DNA from: a virus
Length of the DNA stretch: 44,161 nt
Reading direction: 5' to 3' (one strand)
IMG/VR virus record: IMGVR_UViG_3300021197_000255
Location: 1-44,161 of that record
The notes beneath the pieces were generated by a model, which saw only the letters and a list, made by a program, of their open reading frames with translations, was not told the DNA's origin and did not search any database. Below are positions 10,442 to 15,195 of this stretch, one piece after another. The position numbers and the translations under genes were made by a program. Numbering within the stretch: the first letter of the stretch is position 1; the number at the start of each line of letters is the position of its first letter.

Positions 10442-10470
10442 ATTATAGAAGTAGTTTACAGATTTGTCAA
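10442..10470 (-). promoter_or_regulatory. consensus sigma70 promoter for the leftward packaging/head operon
   Basis: On the minus strand TTGACA (10470-10465), a 17-base spacer and TATAAT (10447-10442) match the bacterial sigma70 consensus at all twelve positions. The expected start point about seven bases further on is 10435, the A of the terS ATG. No phage polymerase gene is seen in the window, so host RNA polymerase is the likely user. Confidence 0.9.
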
Positions 10471-10489
10471 GTTTTTTCTTGACAAATCT
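10460..10489. repeat. inverted repeat covering both divergent -35 elements
   Basis: Twelve-base arms (AGATTTGTCAAG and CTTGACAAATCT) flank a TTTTTT centre. Each arm holds the complete -35 hexamer of one of the two divergent promoters. The arrangement could simply reflect mirrored promoters, or it could be an operator at which one dimeric protein controls both directions. Confidence 0.85.
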
Positions 10490-10507
10490 CAAATCTATCT
10501 CTATAAT
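10479..10507 (+). promoter_or_regulatory. consensus sigma70 promoter for the rightward early operon
   Basis: TTGACA (10479-10484), a 17-base spacer and TATAAT (10502-10507) give a perfect consensus. Transcription would begin near 10514 and run through a leader of about 670 bases of hairpins before the first early gene at 11182. Confidence 0.9.
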
Positions 10508-10555
10508 ATCCATAGACCCACCGGGGCTATATCTATATCTACATAGCCCTTAAAA

Positions 10556-10623
10556 GACTTTGAAGACCCGCCCAAACTGCTTTGGAGGTTGGTAGGACTT
10601 TGAAGACCCGCTTAAACTAGTTT
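10556..10623 (+). repeat. two 28-base direct repeats, 40 bases apart
   Basis: Copies at 10556-10583 and 10596-10623 share GACTTTGAAGACCCGC exactly, then differ at four positions before a shared TTT. The motif CTTTGAAGA recurs in the first hairpin at 10698. They could be iterons or protein-binding sites in the early leader. Confidence 0.7.
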
Positions 10624-10697
10624 ACATTCAATTTCTCCTTAAAATGTATATGATTTAGTATATATATAGGGGGAGGGGTATGGCCACCTGCCCAGCC

Positions 10698-11071
10698 CTT
10701 TGAAGATCTAAGAAGATCTTCAAAGTGCTTTACTATTCTATGGATTGCCACTAAATAATCTATGAAGTCTCAAGAGACTTCAAAGATTATTTAATTTCAT
10801 AGCTCTAAAGTCTCTTGAGACTTTAGAGATTTAGCTCCAGCCTAAAGACTTTCTAGTTTACAAAGTAAACTGAAAGGCTTTAGAGTCTTCTAAGTAATAT
10901 ATTACTTAGAAGATCTTTATAGTTTTCAACAAGTTGAAAACTAAATAGCCCACCGACCTCAAAGCCAATCTAGGTCTTCCTAAGAAGACCTAAAGCCTTC
11001 CAAAACTAAAAGACCCAAGGGGTCTTTTAACCCTTTAAATCTATAAAACCTCTTAGGTTTTATAGATTTAA
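10698..11071 (+). repeat. array of nine consecutive hairpins
   Basis: Nine inverted repeats follow one another: 10698-10725 (12 bp, loop AAGA), 10752-10793 (20 bp, one mismatch, loop AA), 10803-10828 (12 bp, loop TT), 10842-10883 (18 bp, one bulge and one mismatch), 10886-10913 (13 bp, self-complementary), 10920-10943 (11 bp), 10971-10992 (9 bp), 11007-11029 (10 bp, followed on its 3' side by TTTT, terminator-like) and 11035-11071 (17 bp, perfect). Loops are two to four bases. A tenth hairpin with a conserved core follows directly at 11072. Confidence 0.85.
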
Positions 11072-11130
11072 TAGACTCTATATTTTTAAGAAGGAAGGTC
11101 TTACGACCTTCTTAAAAATATAGAGGTCTA
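11072..11130 (+). repeat. bulged core hairpin, copy 1
   Basis: An outer stem (TAGAC, then TCTATATTTTTAA, pairing with TTAAAAATATAGA and GGTCTA with one bulged base) encloses a four-base GAAG bulge and an inner 7-bp stem GAAGGTC-TTAC-GACCTTC. The inner part is identical in copies 2 and 3, while the outer stem differs but still pairs. It ends 52 bases before the first early gene. Confidence 0.85.
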
Positions 11131-11135
11131 AAGCC

Positions 11136-11153
11136 GCCGGGCTTCGGCTCGGC
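11136..11153 (+). promoter_or_regulatory. UUCG tetraloop hairpin before the first early gene
   Basis: A 7-bp GC-rich stem (GCCGGGC with GCTCGGC, one G-U pair) closes a C-TTCG-G tetraloop, an extra-stable RNA hairpin. No T-run follows, so it is not a normal terminator. It lies 28 bases before the ATG at 11182 and could protect the mRNA or a processed 5' end. Confidence 0.7.
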
Positions 11154-11181
11154 ACCGAAAAAATACGATTAGGAAACTAAT

Positions 11182-11556
11182 ATGGCTAATTATGATTTGA
11201 CTCGTCCTGCGACCAACAAAGCAATCTACGCTGTGGCAGCGAAGCTGGCTTACAATTTCATCGGTGAAAACGATCTCAAGCGTTTTGAGTTTAATAAACT
11301 CAAAGCTCGATTCGGTGCCGTGATCAAGTCGGTTCACGATGGTCAGCCCTTGGCTGGTGACATCGACAAGTTGTTCAAGGTCAAGAAAATTACTGCGAAG
11401 AACTCGGCGGCTGCTAAGTACCTTAAGGTACTTAAAACTGAAGATCTCAAGCCGAATCAAGAAGCTCCGATCACTGCCAAAGGCAAAGTCTCAAAGAACT
11501 TTAAGACTTCCTCGGCTCCTCGAATTGCTACTGCTGCTGACCTTGGAATGATCTAA
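11182..11556 (+). CDS. first early gene product, unknown, 124 aa
   Basis: A basic 124-residue protein (MANYDLTRPATNKAIYAVAAKL start; KLFKVKKITAKNSAAAKYLKVL; TAKGKVSKNFKTSS) with AGGAAAC upstream of the ATG. It is the first gene after the hairpin leader and is followed by a terminator, so it is likely expressed early and strongly on its own. Codon choice is richer in GC than in neighbouring early genes. A nucleic-acid-binding takeover protein would fit its charge and position, but no family is recognised; the overlapping leftward frame is a shadow. Confidence 0.8.
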   Translation: MANYDLTRPATNKAIYAVAAKLAYNFIGENDLKRFEFNKLKARFGAVIKSVHDGQPLAGDIDKLFKVKKITAKNSAAAKYLKVLKTEDLKPNQEAPITAKGKVSKNFKTSSAPRIATAADLGMI

Positions 11557-11558
11557 AC

Positions 11559-11588
11559 TTGACAAAGCCCCTTCGGGGGCTTTACAAT
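11559..11588 (+). promoter_or_regulatory. sigma70-like promoter with a terminator hairpin in its spacer
   Basis: TTGACA (11559-11564), an 18-base spacer and TACAAT (11583-11588) form a near-consensus promoter that overlaps the end of the first early gene. The start point would be near 11595, just before the GGAG and ATG of the next gene. Confidence 0.65.
11564..11583 (+). terminator. terminator-like hairpin with TTCG loop
   Basis: AAAGCCCC-TTCG-GGGGCTTT is a perfect 8-bp stem followed by only a short T-run (the last TTT is in the stem) and ACAAT. It begins eight bases after the stop of the first early gene. It may stop most early transcripts while a new start is made from the promoter whose spacer it occupies. 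Confidence 0.7.
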
Positions 11589-11612
11589 CCCTTTGTAATT
11601 TTTGGAGTTGTT

Positions 11613-11888
11613 ATGAGTAGATTAGATGATTTGCGAAAAGAAATAGATGTTCTTGTAGATGAAATAAAAATTGAAAAAGCTGCGTTAGATATTCTATCAA
11701 AAGCTCTCTTAATTCCTGATAATACTGAACGTCTTAAAGAGATGTCAGATAAAATTTATTTACTTTTCATGGATCAATATCGGCGCTGTCAACACTTAGA
11801 TAATCTTCTTGGCTATAAGCAAGAAGAACTATTCATACTTTTAGATTTAGACTGCGATGAATTAGAAATTGAGGAGGTTTGCCAATGA
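11613..11888 (+). CDS. helical early protein A, 91 aa
   Basis: The start is ATG 11613, with GGAG seven bases upstream; the frame extends further back but without a ribosome site. The acidic protein MSRLDDLRKEIDVLVDEIKIEK is largely coiled coil, with a LIPDNTERLKEM linker and a C-terminal acidic tail. It resembles the next gene product (MSR opening, central P-x-(N/G)-x-R-L, helical C-half), so the two may be diverged duplicates. Its function is unknown; it belongs to a compact early operon. Confidence 0.7.
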   Translation: MSRLDDLRKEIDVLVDEIKIEKAALDILSKALLIPDNTERLKEMSDKIYLLFMDQYRRCQHLDNLLGYKQEELFILLDLDCDELEIEEVCQ

Positions 11889-12148
11889 GTAGAGAATTGT
11901 TAAAAAATAATTTGCGAGAGAAAGTAATTGATCTTGATATAGATATTCAGGTTCAGAAAAGTCTAGCGGAGCAATTAGAAGGTATTAAAGTTCCTGCTTC
12001 TGGCAACCGCCTTGTAGACTTAAATGTGGAAGCTAAGATTACCGATCTTGTTATAGAAACAAAGCGGCATATAATAGATCTAATTGATCTAAGAATAGAA
12101 GCCCTTAAAGAATTACTAGAGATTGTAGAAGACGAGGAAGCTGCGTAA
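11885..12148 (+). CDS. helical early protein B, 87 aa
   Basis: ATG 11885 overlaps the previous stop as ATGA and has GAGGAGG eight bases upstream, so it is preferred to the TTG at 11879. The product (MSRELLKNNLREKVIDLDID) is acidic and helical, with ASGNRLVDLNVEAK in the middle and LKELLEIVEDEEAA at the end. It parallels the preceding protein and may be a tandem paralogue. No domain is recognised. Confidence 0.7.
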   Translation: MSRELLKNNLREKVIDLDIDIQVQKSLAEQLEGIKVPASGNRLVDLNVEAKITDLVIETKRHIIDLIDLRIEALKELLEIVEDEEAA

Positions 12149-12378
12149 TGTTAAAGTTTGGATGGTACTTGTTGTTTTTTGTTTACTTTATTTTAACTCT
12201 TTTTATGACAGGAGGCACAATACTGTGGTTCTATGAGTTGTTAGTTTATGGTGTCAAGTATGAAACTGGCGCTATAATCGGCAGCTTTTTATTTAGTATT
12301 GCTTCGGTGGGAGCTTGGACAATCACTGTAAGTGTTTATCATTTGATGCGGCACGATCTGCGTTATAAAGGTAAATAA
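12148..12378 (+). CDS. small membrane protein, two transmembrane segments, 76 aa
   Basis: TAATG links it to the previous gene. Residues about 4-30 (FGWYLLFFVYFILTLFMTGG and on) and 40-66 (TGAIIGSFLFSIASVGAWTI and on) are hydrophobic helices joined by a short loop, with a basic tail RHDLRYKGK. It probably sits in the host inner membrane early in infection. Exclusion of other phages or effects on host transport are possible, but nothing identifies the role. Confidence 0.75.
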   Translation: MLKFGWYLLFFVYFILTLFMTGGTILWFYELLVYGVKYETGAIIGSFLFSIASVGAWTITVSVYHLMRHDLRYKGK

Positions 12379-12386
12379 AACTAGGA

Positions 12387-12444
12387 AGCCCTACTTGTTT
12401 CTAAGAAGGAAGGTCTTACGACCTTCTTAGAAACAAGTAGGGCT
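12387..12444 (+). repeat. bulged core hairpin, copy 2
   Basis: A perfect 18-bp outer stem (AGCCCTACTTGTTTCTAA with its complement) and the invariant inner stem GAAGGTC-TTAC-GACCTTC are separated by the one-sided GAAG bulge. It stands 24 bases before the next gene. A weak -10-like TATAAA lies at 12364-12369. Confidence 0.88.
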
Positions 12445-12467
12445 ATTATTAATGGTGGGAGCCAACG

Positions 12468-12701
12468 ATGAGATTGATTAATGTAATTGCTTCGGAGATT
12501 GAAAATGATTGGGTTAAAGTTAATTATGCTGCTCGTCCTTATCTTGATGCCATGAAAGAACTTTATACTATCAACGACGCTTACTATTTAGATAGTGCCG
12601 ACGGTATTGTATCAAGATTCCTAGCAAACGCTGGGTCATGGCGAGGCGATGTTGCCCGTAAAGTTAAACAAGAATTAAAGGAAATGCTAAATGGAGTGTA
12701 G
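12468..12701 (+). CDS. hypothetical early protein, 77 aa
   Basis: GTGGGAG lies upstream of ATG 12468. The product MRLINVIASEIENDWVKVNY has a helical, mixed-charge sequence with YLDAMKELYTINDAYYLDSADG and GSWRGDVARKVKQELKEML, a pattern I associate with short proteins found widely in phages but cannot name. It begins directly after hairpin copy 2 and overlaps the next micro-gene by 11 bases. Confidence 0.75.
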   Translation: MRLINVIASEIENDWVKVNYAARPYLDAMKELYTINDAYYLDSADGIVSRFLANAGSWRGDVARKVKQELKEMLNGV

Positions 12702-12816
12702 TTGCGAGCGATGTGGTGCAGTTAAATGTATTTATTCAATGGCTTATGTTGAGATGAAATTGTTGTGTGCTAAGTGTGCGATGGTGGCTGTCAACTGGAG
12801 TAAAAACAATGACTAA
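12691..12816 (+). CDS. zinc-ribbon micro-protein, 41 aa
   Basis: ATG 12691 to TAA 12816 gives 41 residues with CSCERCG near the start and CAKC near the end, the paired-cysteine layout of a small zinc ribbon. A similar 44-residue protein occurs at 15192. It overlaps the genes on both sides by a few bases. It probably binds nucleic acid or a host protein; the partner is unknown. Confidence 0.65.
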   Translation: MECSCERCGAVKCIYSMAYVEMKLLCAKCAMVAVNWSKNND

Positions 12817-13621
12817 TTTAATAACTTCAACGGCCTTTGAAGCTATAAAGCCCTACAAAGATTATATATATAATTATAAATACCCTTTGTTAGGTTTTAA
12901 TAGTTCTACTAAGGTCTTAAAAGGCTTTAAATTAAAAGATTATACCACAGGTATATTGTATTTGCAACCATCAAATGCTGTAGCTACTAAAACTTTATGT
13001 GCTTATGCTACTACTGCTGGGTGTGAAGATGAGTGTTTAGGTAAAACTTCTGGTCGACTTGCAATGAATCAATCACAATTAGCTATGACTAGAAGGACGG
13101 TGCAGTATCTTAAAGATCCCGATGGCTTTAAAGACCGCCTTAGAATTGAGATACTTAAGAAAGAAACAGATAACTACTGCATTCGCCTCAATGGTACTAG
13201 TGATGTGGATTGGTCTGATCTGATTGAGTCGCTGCCTAACATACAGTTTTATGATTACACTAAGATCTTAACTAGAGTTAAGAAAAATAAACTATCTAAC
13301 TATCATTTAACTTACTCAGCATCCTTCAACAATACAAAATGTATTAATAATTTTATTAAGGCCGTGAAGCTGGGCTTGAATACAGTAGTGTCTTTCAATA
13401 CTAAAGAAGCTAAGGGTGAGTTCAAGATACCGTCGCACATTTATGTGCGAGGAAGTAAAGTAAATTTATCTAGCTTTGACACTACCGACTTAAGATTTTT
13501 AGATCATAATGGTGCGGTAGGATCGTTGAAGCGCAAAGGATCACAAAAGAAAACTAGATTAGATGAGCTTGGTAAATTTAATTTCTTTGCAGATCCTATA
13601 ACAATTAAAGCGGCGGCTTGA
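12809..13621 (+). CDS. GP88-family-like cysteine-motif protein, 270 aa
   Basis: The start is ATG 12809 (GGAG upstream), not the longer frame from 12767. The protein MTNLITSTAFEAIKPYKDYI has a cysteine-rich segment LCAYATTAGCEDECLGKTSG followed by RLNGTSDVDW, NIQFYDYTKIL and HLTYSAS. This order (Cys cluster with GR/GK, then a W-containing strand, then FY-YTK) resembles phage GP88-type proteins, which are thought to bind metal or an iron-sulfur cluster. The function is unknown. The stop codon lies inside the next promoter. Confidence 0.6.
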   Translation: MTNLITSTAFEAIKPYKDYIYNYKYPLLGFNSSTKVLKGFKLKDYTTGILYLQPSNAVATKTLCAYATTAGCEDECLGKTSGRLAMNQSQLAMTRRTVQYLKDPDGFKDRLRIEILKKETDNYCIRLNGTSDVDWSDLIESLPNIQFYDYTKILTRVKKNKLSNYHLTYSASFNNTKCINNFIKAVKLGLNTVVSFNTKEAKGEFKIPSHIYVRGSKVNLSSFDTTDLRFLDHNGAVGSLKRKGSQKKTRLDELGKFNFFADPITIKAAA

Positions 13622-13646
13622 CAGGTCAACTAAAATACTTTATAAT
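13618..13646 (+). promoter_or_regulatory. consensus sigma70 promoter before hairpin copy 3
   Basis: TTGACA (13618-13623), a 17-base spacer and TATAAT (13641-13646) match the consensus exactly. The predicted start at about 13653 coincides with the left arm of the third bulged hairpin, so the transcript would begin with that structure. The -35 overlaps the stop codon of the preceding gene. Confidence 0.9.
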
Positions 13647-13650
13647 TCTT

Positions 13651-13696
13651 ACCTGTTTTTAAGAAGGAAGGTCTTACGACCTTCTTAAAAACAGGT
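13651..13696 (+). repeat. bulged core hairpin, copy 3
   Basis: The outer stem ACCTGTTTTTAA with TTAAAAACAGGT (12 bp, extendable by about three pairs) encloses the GAAG bulge and the invariant inner stem. It lies at the predicted 5' end of the transcript for the DUF932 gene. Confidence 0.88.
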
Positions 13697-13803
13697 AGGT
13701 CGGTTGGGTGCACCGTGAAGCATGACCCGTCGCCTCCTTCGGGAACCTTAAAGAGCGACAGTAAGAAGTTGGTAACTTATTATTTTATAACTATGGAGTT
13801 CGT
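13697..13803 (+). other. structured leader of the DUF932 gene
   Basis: Between the hairpin and the gene, the leader can form GTCGC/GCGAC around a TCC-TTCG-GGA hairpin (about 13729-13758), and it carries the self-complementary GGTGCACC just upstream. A nine-codon frame begins at ATG 13722 within it. I do not recognise a riboswitch class. Confidence 0.45.
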
Positions 13804-14748
13804 ATGAATACAGTAGTATCAATGTTCGGCAACCGATCAGCACTTGACACCCTAAGAAATGATGGGTATGGCGGTGCTGATTTTGAAGTGGCTTCTTCAC
13901 CAGTACTTTATAAGACTAATGATTTCGGACACCATGTACTGAGCGGTAAGCGAGTTTACTTTCGAGAAGATACTGGTGATGCTTTAGCAATCCACGGCGA
14001 GCGGTACAAGCCTGTGTCTCACAAAGAAATGATTGATACTGCTCGCAATGTACTAGAGCGTAGCGAGTTAAACCTTGATGGCATCAAAGAAAGAATTGAA
14101 GTTGGCGACAACGGCTCAGTTTGTTTTGTTCGGCACTTGCTGCCCAACCATGAGATACAAACTCCTGATGGTGACACGGCACAAATGACTATGTTGCACA
14201 TCAATTCTTTTAACTCAGTGTGGCCTTACCAAGCCAGTGCTGGAGCGCATCAATCAGCCTGTACTAATCATCAAGTATTTGTTACTGGTGCTGCCACAAT
14301 CTACAAGGCTCGACATACTCAGAAGTTAAATGTAGATCATGGCGCTAGACAGTTGAATGGTATTATCGGGATGCTGGATAAGCAGAATGAGATATGGGCT
14401 GAGTGGGCTAATAAAGAAGTTAAGGATACAATTGCTTTCATCCACATTGCAGAGGCTGCGGGTTCTAAGTTTGCAATAGGTAAAGTTTCTGAAGGTGAGC
14501 GAGTGTATGATATTATGAATATGCCTACTGCCTACAACAACAGCAGTTTAGTTTACATGTGGGATAAATATACAACACATTACCGCCGCAACATGGGTAA
14601 CAATCATTGGGCTTTGTACAATACATTAACTGATTGGTCTAGCCATCATCGCGGTAGCCGTAAGAACTCTGTAGACTTTCCAGTTGCTCAAGTTAAAAAG
14701 TCTGAGCGGGTGCAGAAAGTAATTAGTTCTTTCCCGCTCGCTGCATAG
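13804..14748 (+). CDS. DUF932 family protein, 314 aa
   Basis: The protein MNTVVSMFGNRSALDTLRND carries the DUF932 hallmarks: AIHGERYKPVSHKEMIDTAR, VCFVRHLLPNH, MLHINSFNSVWPYQASAGAH and SACTNHQVF, then a helical C-half ending in SERVQKVISSFPLAA. The family is widespread in phages and plasmids with no established biochemical role. Here it has its own consensus promoter and structured leader with GGAG upstream of the ATG, suggesting strong early expression. Confidence 0.85.
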   Translation: MNTVVSMFGNRSALDTLRNDGYGGADFEVASSPVLYKTNDFGHHVLSGKRVYFREDTGDALAIHGERYKPVSHKEMIDTARNVLERSELNLDGIKERIEVGDNGSVCFVRHLLPNHEIQTPDGDTAQMTMLHINSFNSVWPYQASAGAHQSACTNHQVFVTGAATIYKARHTQKLNVDHGARQLNGIIGMLDKQNEIWAEWANKEVKDTIAFIHIAEAAGSKFAIGKVSEGERVYDIMNMPTAYNNSSLVYMWDKYTTHYRRNMGNNHWALYNTLTDWSSHHRGSRKNSVDFPVAQVKKSERVQKVISSFPLAA

Positions 14749-14834
14749 TTTTCCTTGCCACCTGAGTAAGTGGATAAACTTCTCAATCCCTGAGCATGGT
14801 GTAAAACTGCTCGCTTTTAACTTGGAGATTAGTA

Positions 14835-14975
14835 ATGGATGACGTTAGCAATTTTATTAATTACACTATTGCATGGAGCGACAGAAAACAGTCTTATGTT
14901 TTGGTCGTAGATCCTGATGAGTTTGAAAGACTGTTACGCCAGCTAGTAAATGGGGAGAATGAAAATGAAAACTAG
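14835..14975 (+). CDS. small acidic protein, 46 aa
   Basis: ATG 14835, preceded by TTGGAG, gives MDDVSNFINYTIAWSDRKQS and ends ENENEN. It lies 86 bases after the DUF932 gene; those bases hold only weak stem-loops. Its end overlaps the next gene. The function is unknown, and its support is the ribosome site and fit into the operon. Confidence 0.55.
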   Translation: MDDVSNFINYTIAWSDRKQSYVLVVDPDEFERLLRQLVNGENENEN

Positions 14976-15195
14976 AATCCATGTTAATCAACACAATATT
15001 AAATCAAATAGTAAAGGTGCTAAGCTGCCTGTGATTTCTGTCAAAGACTACAAACAAAATAGAAAAGCTAATCATGCTGCTGTAGTAGATGATGATGGCA
15101 AGGCGTTAGTAAAAGTAATTTATTCACCAGACAACCCACTACCTTGTGGCGCTAAAGTTTGGATTGAAACTGATCTTGAGGTAATAACAATATGA
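14965..15195 (+). CDS. hypothetical protein, 76 aa
   Basis: Three in-frame ATGs occur (14950, 14959, 14965). GGGGAG at 14952-14957 favours 14965. The basic N-half (MKTRIHVNQHNIKSNSKGAK) is followed by beta-like VVDDDGKALVKVIYS and LPCGAKVWIETDLEVITI. It may be a small nucleic-acid-binding protein. It overlaps the next micro-gene by four bases. Confidence 0.65.
   Translation: MKTRIHVNQHNIKSNSKGAKLPVISVKDYKQNRKANHAAVVDDDGKALVKVIYSPDNPLPCGAKVWIETDLEVITI

What the first reader, a model, noticed from the sequence alone, without database searches (positions are those of the whole stretch)
11072..13696. A bulged hairpin with an invariant core occurs three times, with compensating outer stems
Copies at 11072-11130, 12387-12444 and 13651-13696 share AAGAAG, then GAAGGTC-TTAC-GACCTTC, then TTA. 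The outer stems differ in sequence (CTATATTTTTAA, ACTTGTTTCTAA, ACCTGTTTTTAA) but each pairs fully with its partner. Covariation of this kind implies selection for the folded form (RNA, or a DNA cruciform), while the core and the one-sided four-base GAAG bulge are held constant. Each copy precedes a rightward early gene. T7-like phages process early mRNA at RNase III sites that are stems with asymmetric bulges, so these could be processing or stability elements; a protein-binding RNA or a phage-specific regulator site is also possible.
Basis: partly seen in the sequence, partly recalled or inferred. Interest (0 to 1): 0.85.

Follow-up and report, generated by a model that had tools for sequence, protein, structure and literature searches.

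The report
Capped RNA hairpin marking phage leaders
An uncultured marine bacteriophage and its relatives put the same long, oddly capped hairpin at the head of each block of early genes, next to the gene for a small basic protein that occurs in every genome with the hairpin, so it looks like an undescribed phage control signal read in the RNA.

Summary
Three hairpins with an identical cap and different, fully paired arms lie at 11076-11125, 12387-12444 and 13650-13697; shuffles never gave bulged stems above 12 bp (observed 21, 25, 20). Near-complete relatives also carry three, always on the strand of the downstream gene (about 70 copies, 29 contigs). Over 21 distinct elements, 474 of 479 lower-stem pairs are Watson-Crick. 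The cap GTCTTACGAC is nearly invariant; the 'bulge' is 3 or 4 nt (GAG, GAA, GAAG, GATA), not a constant four bases. Copy 3 starts at the predicted transcription start of a sigma70 promoter in four clades. The element occurs only in phages whose first early gene is a 124-aa basic protein, followed at once by an intrinsic terminator. Sister phages with a different first gene lack it. This resembles a nut- or put-type nascent-RNA site; function is inferred, not shown. Caveats: DNA template switching can create compensating stem changes (neighbouring hairpins flip loops between close relatives), so covariation alone does not prove selection; protein and hairpin sit on one exchanged block, so co-occurrence may be linkage. 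Rfam has no match. RNase III or stability roles remain possible.

The parts
11076..11125 (+). Copy 1: stem 11076-11093 / 11108-11125, bulge GAAG 11094-11097, cap GTCTTACGAC 11098-11107
   Evidence: extended foot 11072-11130
12387..12444 (+). Copy 2: stem 12387-12408 / 12423-12444, bulge 12409-12412, cap 12413-12422
13650..13697 (+). Copy 3: stem 13650-13666 / 13681-13697, bulge 13667-13670, cap 13671-13680; begins 4 nt after the -10 box
10479..10507 (+). Perfect sigma70-type promoter (TTGACA-17-TATAAT) for the rightward early transcript
   Evidence: same in relatives
10698..11071 (+). Leader array of perfect hairpins upstream of copy 1 (loops flip between relatives)
11182..11556 (+). p124: 124-aa basic protein (pI about 10, charge +11.6), first early gene, candidate partner of the hairpin
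11564..11583 (+). Terminator-like hairpin AAAGCCCC-TTCG-GGGGCTTT directly after p124
   Evidence: sequence; conserved in all clades
13618..13646 (+). Perfect sigma70-type promoter (TTGACA-17-TATAAT) directly upstream of copy 3
13701..13780 (+). Second structured RNA in the 5' UTR between copy 3 and the DUF932 gene
13804..14748 (+). DUF932-domain gene downstream of copy 3
12468..12701 (+). 77-aa gene downstream of copy 2 (variable gene slot in relatives)

Best explanation
The element is a nascent-RNA signal at the head of the early transcription units of an HMO-2011-related marine podovirus. Host RNA polymerase starts at sigma70 promoters and the transcript folds into a long stem of arbitrary sequence that presents a nearly invariant cap, GAR-GUC-UUAC-GAC. 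A trans-acting factor, most likely the 124-aa basic protein encoded just after copy 1, reads the cap on the emerging RNA and modifies transcription elongation so that polymerase reads through the intrinsic terminator behind that gene. This would work like a lambda nut site with N, or an HK022 put site. Shown: the structure, its conservation, its fixed strand, its link to promoters, leaders and the p124 gene, and the terminator-like hairpin after p124. Inferred: transcription start, binding by p124, and the antitermination output.
For: Three copies in each near-complete relative and none in sister phages. Always the strand of the downstream gene, although the other leader hairpins flip loops freely. 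Lower-stem pairs covary at 10 of 12 positions with 100% pairing, shuffled control 79%. Copy 3: distance from -10 box to cap is 23-24 nt in all 14 contigs, four clades, with the stem foot 4 nt after the -10 box. All 26 contigs with p124 have the element; none of the contigs with the other first-gene family (p159) has it. p124 has pI about 10 and charge about +11. p124 is followed at once by a terminator-like hairpin in 16 of 16 contigs checked, with co-directional genes behind it. This order (promoter, site, small basic protein gene, terminator) is that of the lambda pL-nutL-N-tL1 region (general knowledge). HK022 putL lies at its promoter and putR about 270 nt downstream of its own (PMC9378689), much like copies 3 and 1.
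Against: No binding or transcription data. p124 has no Pfam, PHROG, fold or phage-record match. Sister phages keep a basic first gene (p159) and the terminator but lack the hairpin, and no nut-like repeat was evident there. Element and p124 travel on one recombining block: gp88 and TerS trees split cleanly by type while DUF932 does not, so co-occurrence may be linkage. In two clades copy 2 lies just after a terminator, not before it. No boxA-like sequence accompanies the copies. The terminator of the window clade has a short T tail.
Confidence: 0.38

Rival explanations
1. RNase III processing or mRNA-stability element: the 20-33 bp stems are cut, or protect 5' ends, of early mRNAs as in T7-like phages.
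For: Stems of 20-33 bp in copies 1 and 2, asymmetric discontinuity near the top, intergenic positions, early operons.
Against: Cap sequence kept in almost every distinct element, which RNase III does not need (general knowledge). Copy 3 sits at the predicted 5' end of its transcript, where cutting would separate nothing, and its uninterrupted stem is only 15 bp in several clades.
Confidence: 0.25
2. Translational or autoregulatory operator: p124 or another phage protein binds the capped hairpin to control translation of the next gene.
For: Copies lie 23-106 nt before start codons; a basic partner candidate is encoded at copy 1.
Against: Hairpins do not overlap the ribosome-binding sites, and distance to the start codon differs widely between copies.
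Confidence: 0.12
3. DNA-level by-product: palindromes made and kept perfect by replication template switching, without a function of the stems.
For: Both-arm changes with almost no G-U intermediates (474 of 479 Watson-Crick; 33 two-sided and 0 one-sided changes), against 10 two-sided and 4 one-sided in the neighbouring UTR RNA. Loop flips in adjacent hairpins. Mechanism described in PMC8794818.
Against: Does not explain the conserved cap, the kept one-sided discontinuity, the fixed orientation in about 70 copies, or the stem foot at the predicted transcription start in four clades. It can explain how the arms change, not why the element stays.
Confidence: 0.12
4. Mobile regulatory cassette like the T4 promoter-stem-loop modules, spreading small genes.
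For: Copy 2 precedes different genes in different relatives and is missing, with its gene, in the L005/L006 type.
Against: Copies 1 and 2 have no adjacent promoter of their own; arms differ between copies, so they offer little homology for recombination; positions are otherwise conserved.
Confidence: 0.08

Closest known systems
Lambda nut site with N protein
   Same: Site in the early leader, followed by a gene for a small basic protein and then a terminator with early genes behind it; repeated in more than one early unit.
   Different: No boxA and no short boxB with GNRA-like loop; a long arbitrary stem with a different cap; p124 has no detectable similarity to known families; antitermination not shown.
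HK022 put RNA
   Same: One copy at the promoter and one a few hundred nt into another early leader; structured RNA with unpaired residues inside a stem.
   Different: put is about 70 nt with two stem-loops and acts without a phage protein (PMC9378689); here one stem-loop recurs three times with a nearly invariant cap.
T7 early RNase III sites
   Same: Long early-mRNA stems with an asymmetric discontinuity.
   Different: T7 sites lie between genes and share no fixed loop sequence (general knowledge); here the cap is fixed and one copy is predicted to be 5' terminal.
T4-type mobile regulatory cassettes (promoter plus stem-loop, Arbiol 2010)
   Same: Stem-loops repeated at junctions of small variable genes.
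   Different: Only copy 3 has an adjacent promoter; arms are not shared between copies. Paper not held here, content recalled from memory.
Template-switch hairpins (PMC8794818)
   Same: Perfect stems, simultaneous changes in both arms, loop inversions in the neighbouring leader hairpins.
   Different: The focal cap keeps its orientation and sequence.

Membership tests
Lambda-type nut/N | boxA sequence next to the hairpin | tested here: not met
   No plus-strand boxA-like match near the copies
Lambda-type nut/N | Short boxB hairpin with GNRA-like loop | tested here: not met
   15-33 bp stems, UUAC cap
Lambda-type nut/N | Small basic protein encoded between site and first terminator | tested here: met
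   p124, pI about 10, terminator-like hairpin after it
Lambda-type nut/N | Protein-dependent antitermination | not testable with these tools
   Needs an experiment
HK022 put | Located at or shortly after early promoters | tested here: met
   Copy 3 at the predicted start, copy 1 in the leader
HK022 put | Two adjacent stem-loops, about 70 nt | tested here: inconclusive
   Copy 3 is followed by a structured UTR; copies 1 and 2 lack that UTR
HK022 put | Acts without a phage protein | not testable with these tools
   Needs an experiment
T7-type RNase III site | Stem of about 20 bp or more with asymmetric discontinuity | tested here: inconclusive
   Met by copies 1 and 2; copy 3 has 15 uninterrupted bp in several clades
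T7-type RNase III site | Cleavage by RNase III | not testable with these tools
   Needs an experiment
Any Rfam 15 family | Match above gathering score | tested here: not met
   None reached it (L168, L075) or (window 10500-15000, E up to 5; all below gathering)
T4-type promoter stem-loop cassette | Promoter in every copy | tested here: not met
   Only copy 3 has an adjacent strong promoter

The most novel reading that the evidence does not exclude
A previously undescribed processive antitermination system in marine podoviruses: a capped nascent-RNA hairpin read by a new small basic protein, on an exchangeable early block that alternates with a second, hairpin-less type.
Probability: 0.3. Interest if true: 0.78.

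Novelty: new variant of a known kind. Interest (0 to 1): 0.62.

Why it matters
Phages of the HMO-2011 type are reported to be dominant and widespread in the ocean (PMC9038755), yet I found nothing on how their relatives control early genes. A defined RNA element with a candidate partner protein gives a directly testable early switch. The neighbouring hairpins also offer a natural experiment on how template switching makes and maintains perfect hairpins, and a warning that covariation alone does not prove selection for RNA structure.

Tried and rejected
Rfam: no match at gathering score. Near DNA search, and p124 or DUF932 protein search, of isolated phages: none. Isolates HTVC115P and HTVC103P (only the regions fetched), HMO-2011, CRP-1 and HTVC033P (first 50 kb) lack the element by scanner and covariance model; the only scanner hit there, in HMO-2011 with loop GTTA, looks like a chance match. 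p124 structure prediction: pLDDT 67, no fold match. p124 versus p159 profile comparison: suggestive N-terminal alignment, probability 1.6, not accepted as homology. Host: no relative of p124 or DUF932 in GTDB genomes, so the host is unknown; GC is 39%. boxA search: no support. No tRNA genes. Reading the covariation as direct proof of RNA selection was rejected because of the loop flips and the near absence of G-U intermediates. Hits in unrelated contigs to the short core patterns were mostly chance. Literature searches for a described hairpin of this kind found none.

Full report
What is there. The window is a 44,161-base virus record. Three hairpins with the same top lie at 11076-11125, 12387-12444 and 13650-13697, all on the plus strand. 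Their stems are 21, 25 and 20 bp with a one-sided four-base discontinuity. No dinucleotide shuffle of the window gave a bulged stem above 12 bp in 40 trials, and each folds far better than shuffled sequence.

Which phage. The terminase is 65-67% identical to Pelagibacter phages HTVC115P, HTVC103P and HTVC104P and about 43-50% to HMO-2011-type phages. The genome encodes primase-helicase, DNA polymerase A, ribonucleotide reductase and endonuclease I. No RNA polymerase turned up among the proteins scanned, but not every gene was scanned. The host is unknown.

Relatives. Searches with the DUF932 gene, the exact core and the 124-aa protein (p124) gave many uncultured relatives. Near-complete ones (G001, G002, G003) have exactly three copies, two shorter contigs (G005, G006) have two, and within each record all copies lie on one strand. 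My tally is about 70 copies in 29 contigs, all in the direction of the gene behind them.

Anatomy. Across 21 distinct elements, 474 of 479 lower-stem pairs are Watson-Crick, one is G-U and four are mismatches. In 12 equal-length elements, 10 of 12 lower-stem pairs change on both sides, none on one side, and all cells pair. The cap GTCTTACGAC is invariant except for one clade's copy 2 (GTCTTTAGAC). The discontinuity is GAG, GAA, GAAG or GATA. It usually repeats the stem beside it, so the bulge can slide between registers of nearly equal energy. One relative (L178, copy 2) has GAA where its near relatives have GAG, without a partner change, which places the unpaired bases next to GTC. A covariance model built only from elements with a three-base bulge finds the window's four-base copies at E = 2.7e-7 to 1.3e-6 and nothing in isolates or sister contigs.

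Position. A perfect sigma70-type promoter at 10479-10507 drives a leader of about 670 nt; copy 1 is its last long hairpin. Copy 3 follows another perfect promoter at 13618-13646. In 14 contigs of four clades the distance from the -10 box to the cap is 23-24 nt and the stem starts four bases after the -10 box, whatever the arm sequence. So the palindrome begins about where transcription should begin, which points to RNA rather than DNA as the active form. Copy 2 has no clear promoter; in two clades it sits directly on the tail of an intrinsic terminator.

The coupled gene and its terminator. Comparing genomes, p124 at 11182-11556 is the conserved window gene that tracks the element: present in G001, G002, G003, G005 and G006, absent from G004 and G008, which share most other genes. 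All 26 contigs with p124 have the element, while contigs with a different basic first gene (p159) have none. p124 has pI about 10. Directly after it lies a terminator-like hairpin in 16 of 16 contigs, and likewise after p159 in 7 of 7. The layout promoter, site, small basic gene, terminator, early genes is that of the lambda pL region. Trees show that gp88 and TerS split cleanly by type whereas DUF932 does not: p124, gp88 and the element sit on one block that recombines as a unit, so linkage is a real alternative to functional coupling.

Selection or mutation mechanism. The leader holds 7-9 perfect hairpins of at least 8 bp in nearly all element-bearing relatives (three in L196), and none of 10 bp or more exists anywhere in sister genomes G004 and G008. 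Between close relatives several of their loops are exact reverse complements. This is the signature of replication template switching, which also rewrites both arms together (PMC8794818). The lack of one-sided steps in the focal stems (0 against 33 two-sided changes), compared with 4 against 10 in the UTR RNA behind copy 3, fits the same process. So I do not take the covariation itself as proof of selection. The focal cap, unlike the neighbouring loops, never flips and hardly changes, and that is the better evidence for a strand-specific function.

Mechanism. Best supported is a nascent-RNA site read by a trans factor, most likely p124, acting on elongation and termination as nut or put do (HK022 putL at its promoter, putR about 270 nt downstream: PMC9378689). 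I give 0.38 to this specific model. RNase III or stability functions (0.25), a translational operator (0.12), a DNA-level by-product (0.12) and a mobile cassette (0.08) remain. By membership tests it is not a lambda nut site (no boxA, different hairpin) and not shown to be a put RNA; it may still work like one. Rfam has no match.

Noticed in passing
13701-13780: A second structured RNA in the UTR of the DUF932 gene: four helices, six covarying pairs, no Rfam match. Possibly a separate cis-regulatory RNA.
   Followed up: partly
10698-11071: Leader array of 7-9 perfect hairpins in nearly all element-bearing relatives, with loops that flip between close relatives; absent from sister genomes.
   Followed up: partly
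11182-11556 and L094:2807-3286: The first early gene alternates between two basic protein families with weak N-terminal resemblance, each followed by a terminator-like hairpin.
   Followed up: partly
L075:3575-3641, L168 around 2600: Copy 2 overlaps or abuts the tail of an intrinsic terminator in two clades.
   Followed up: partly
L399:4778-5077: Copy 2 of this relative lies in frame inside the 5' end of an open reading frame.
   Followed up: no
10442-10507: Two divergent, perfect sigma70-type promoters back to back, inside the longest open frame of the terminase small subunit gene, whose true start is probably further in.
   Followed up: no
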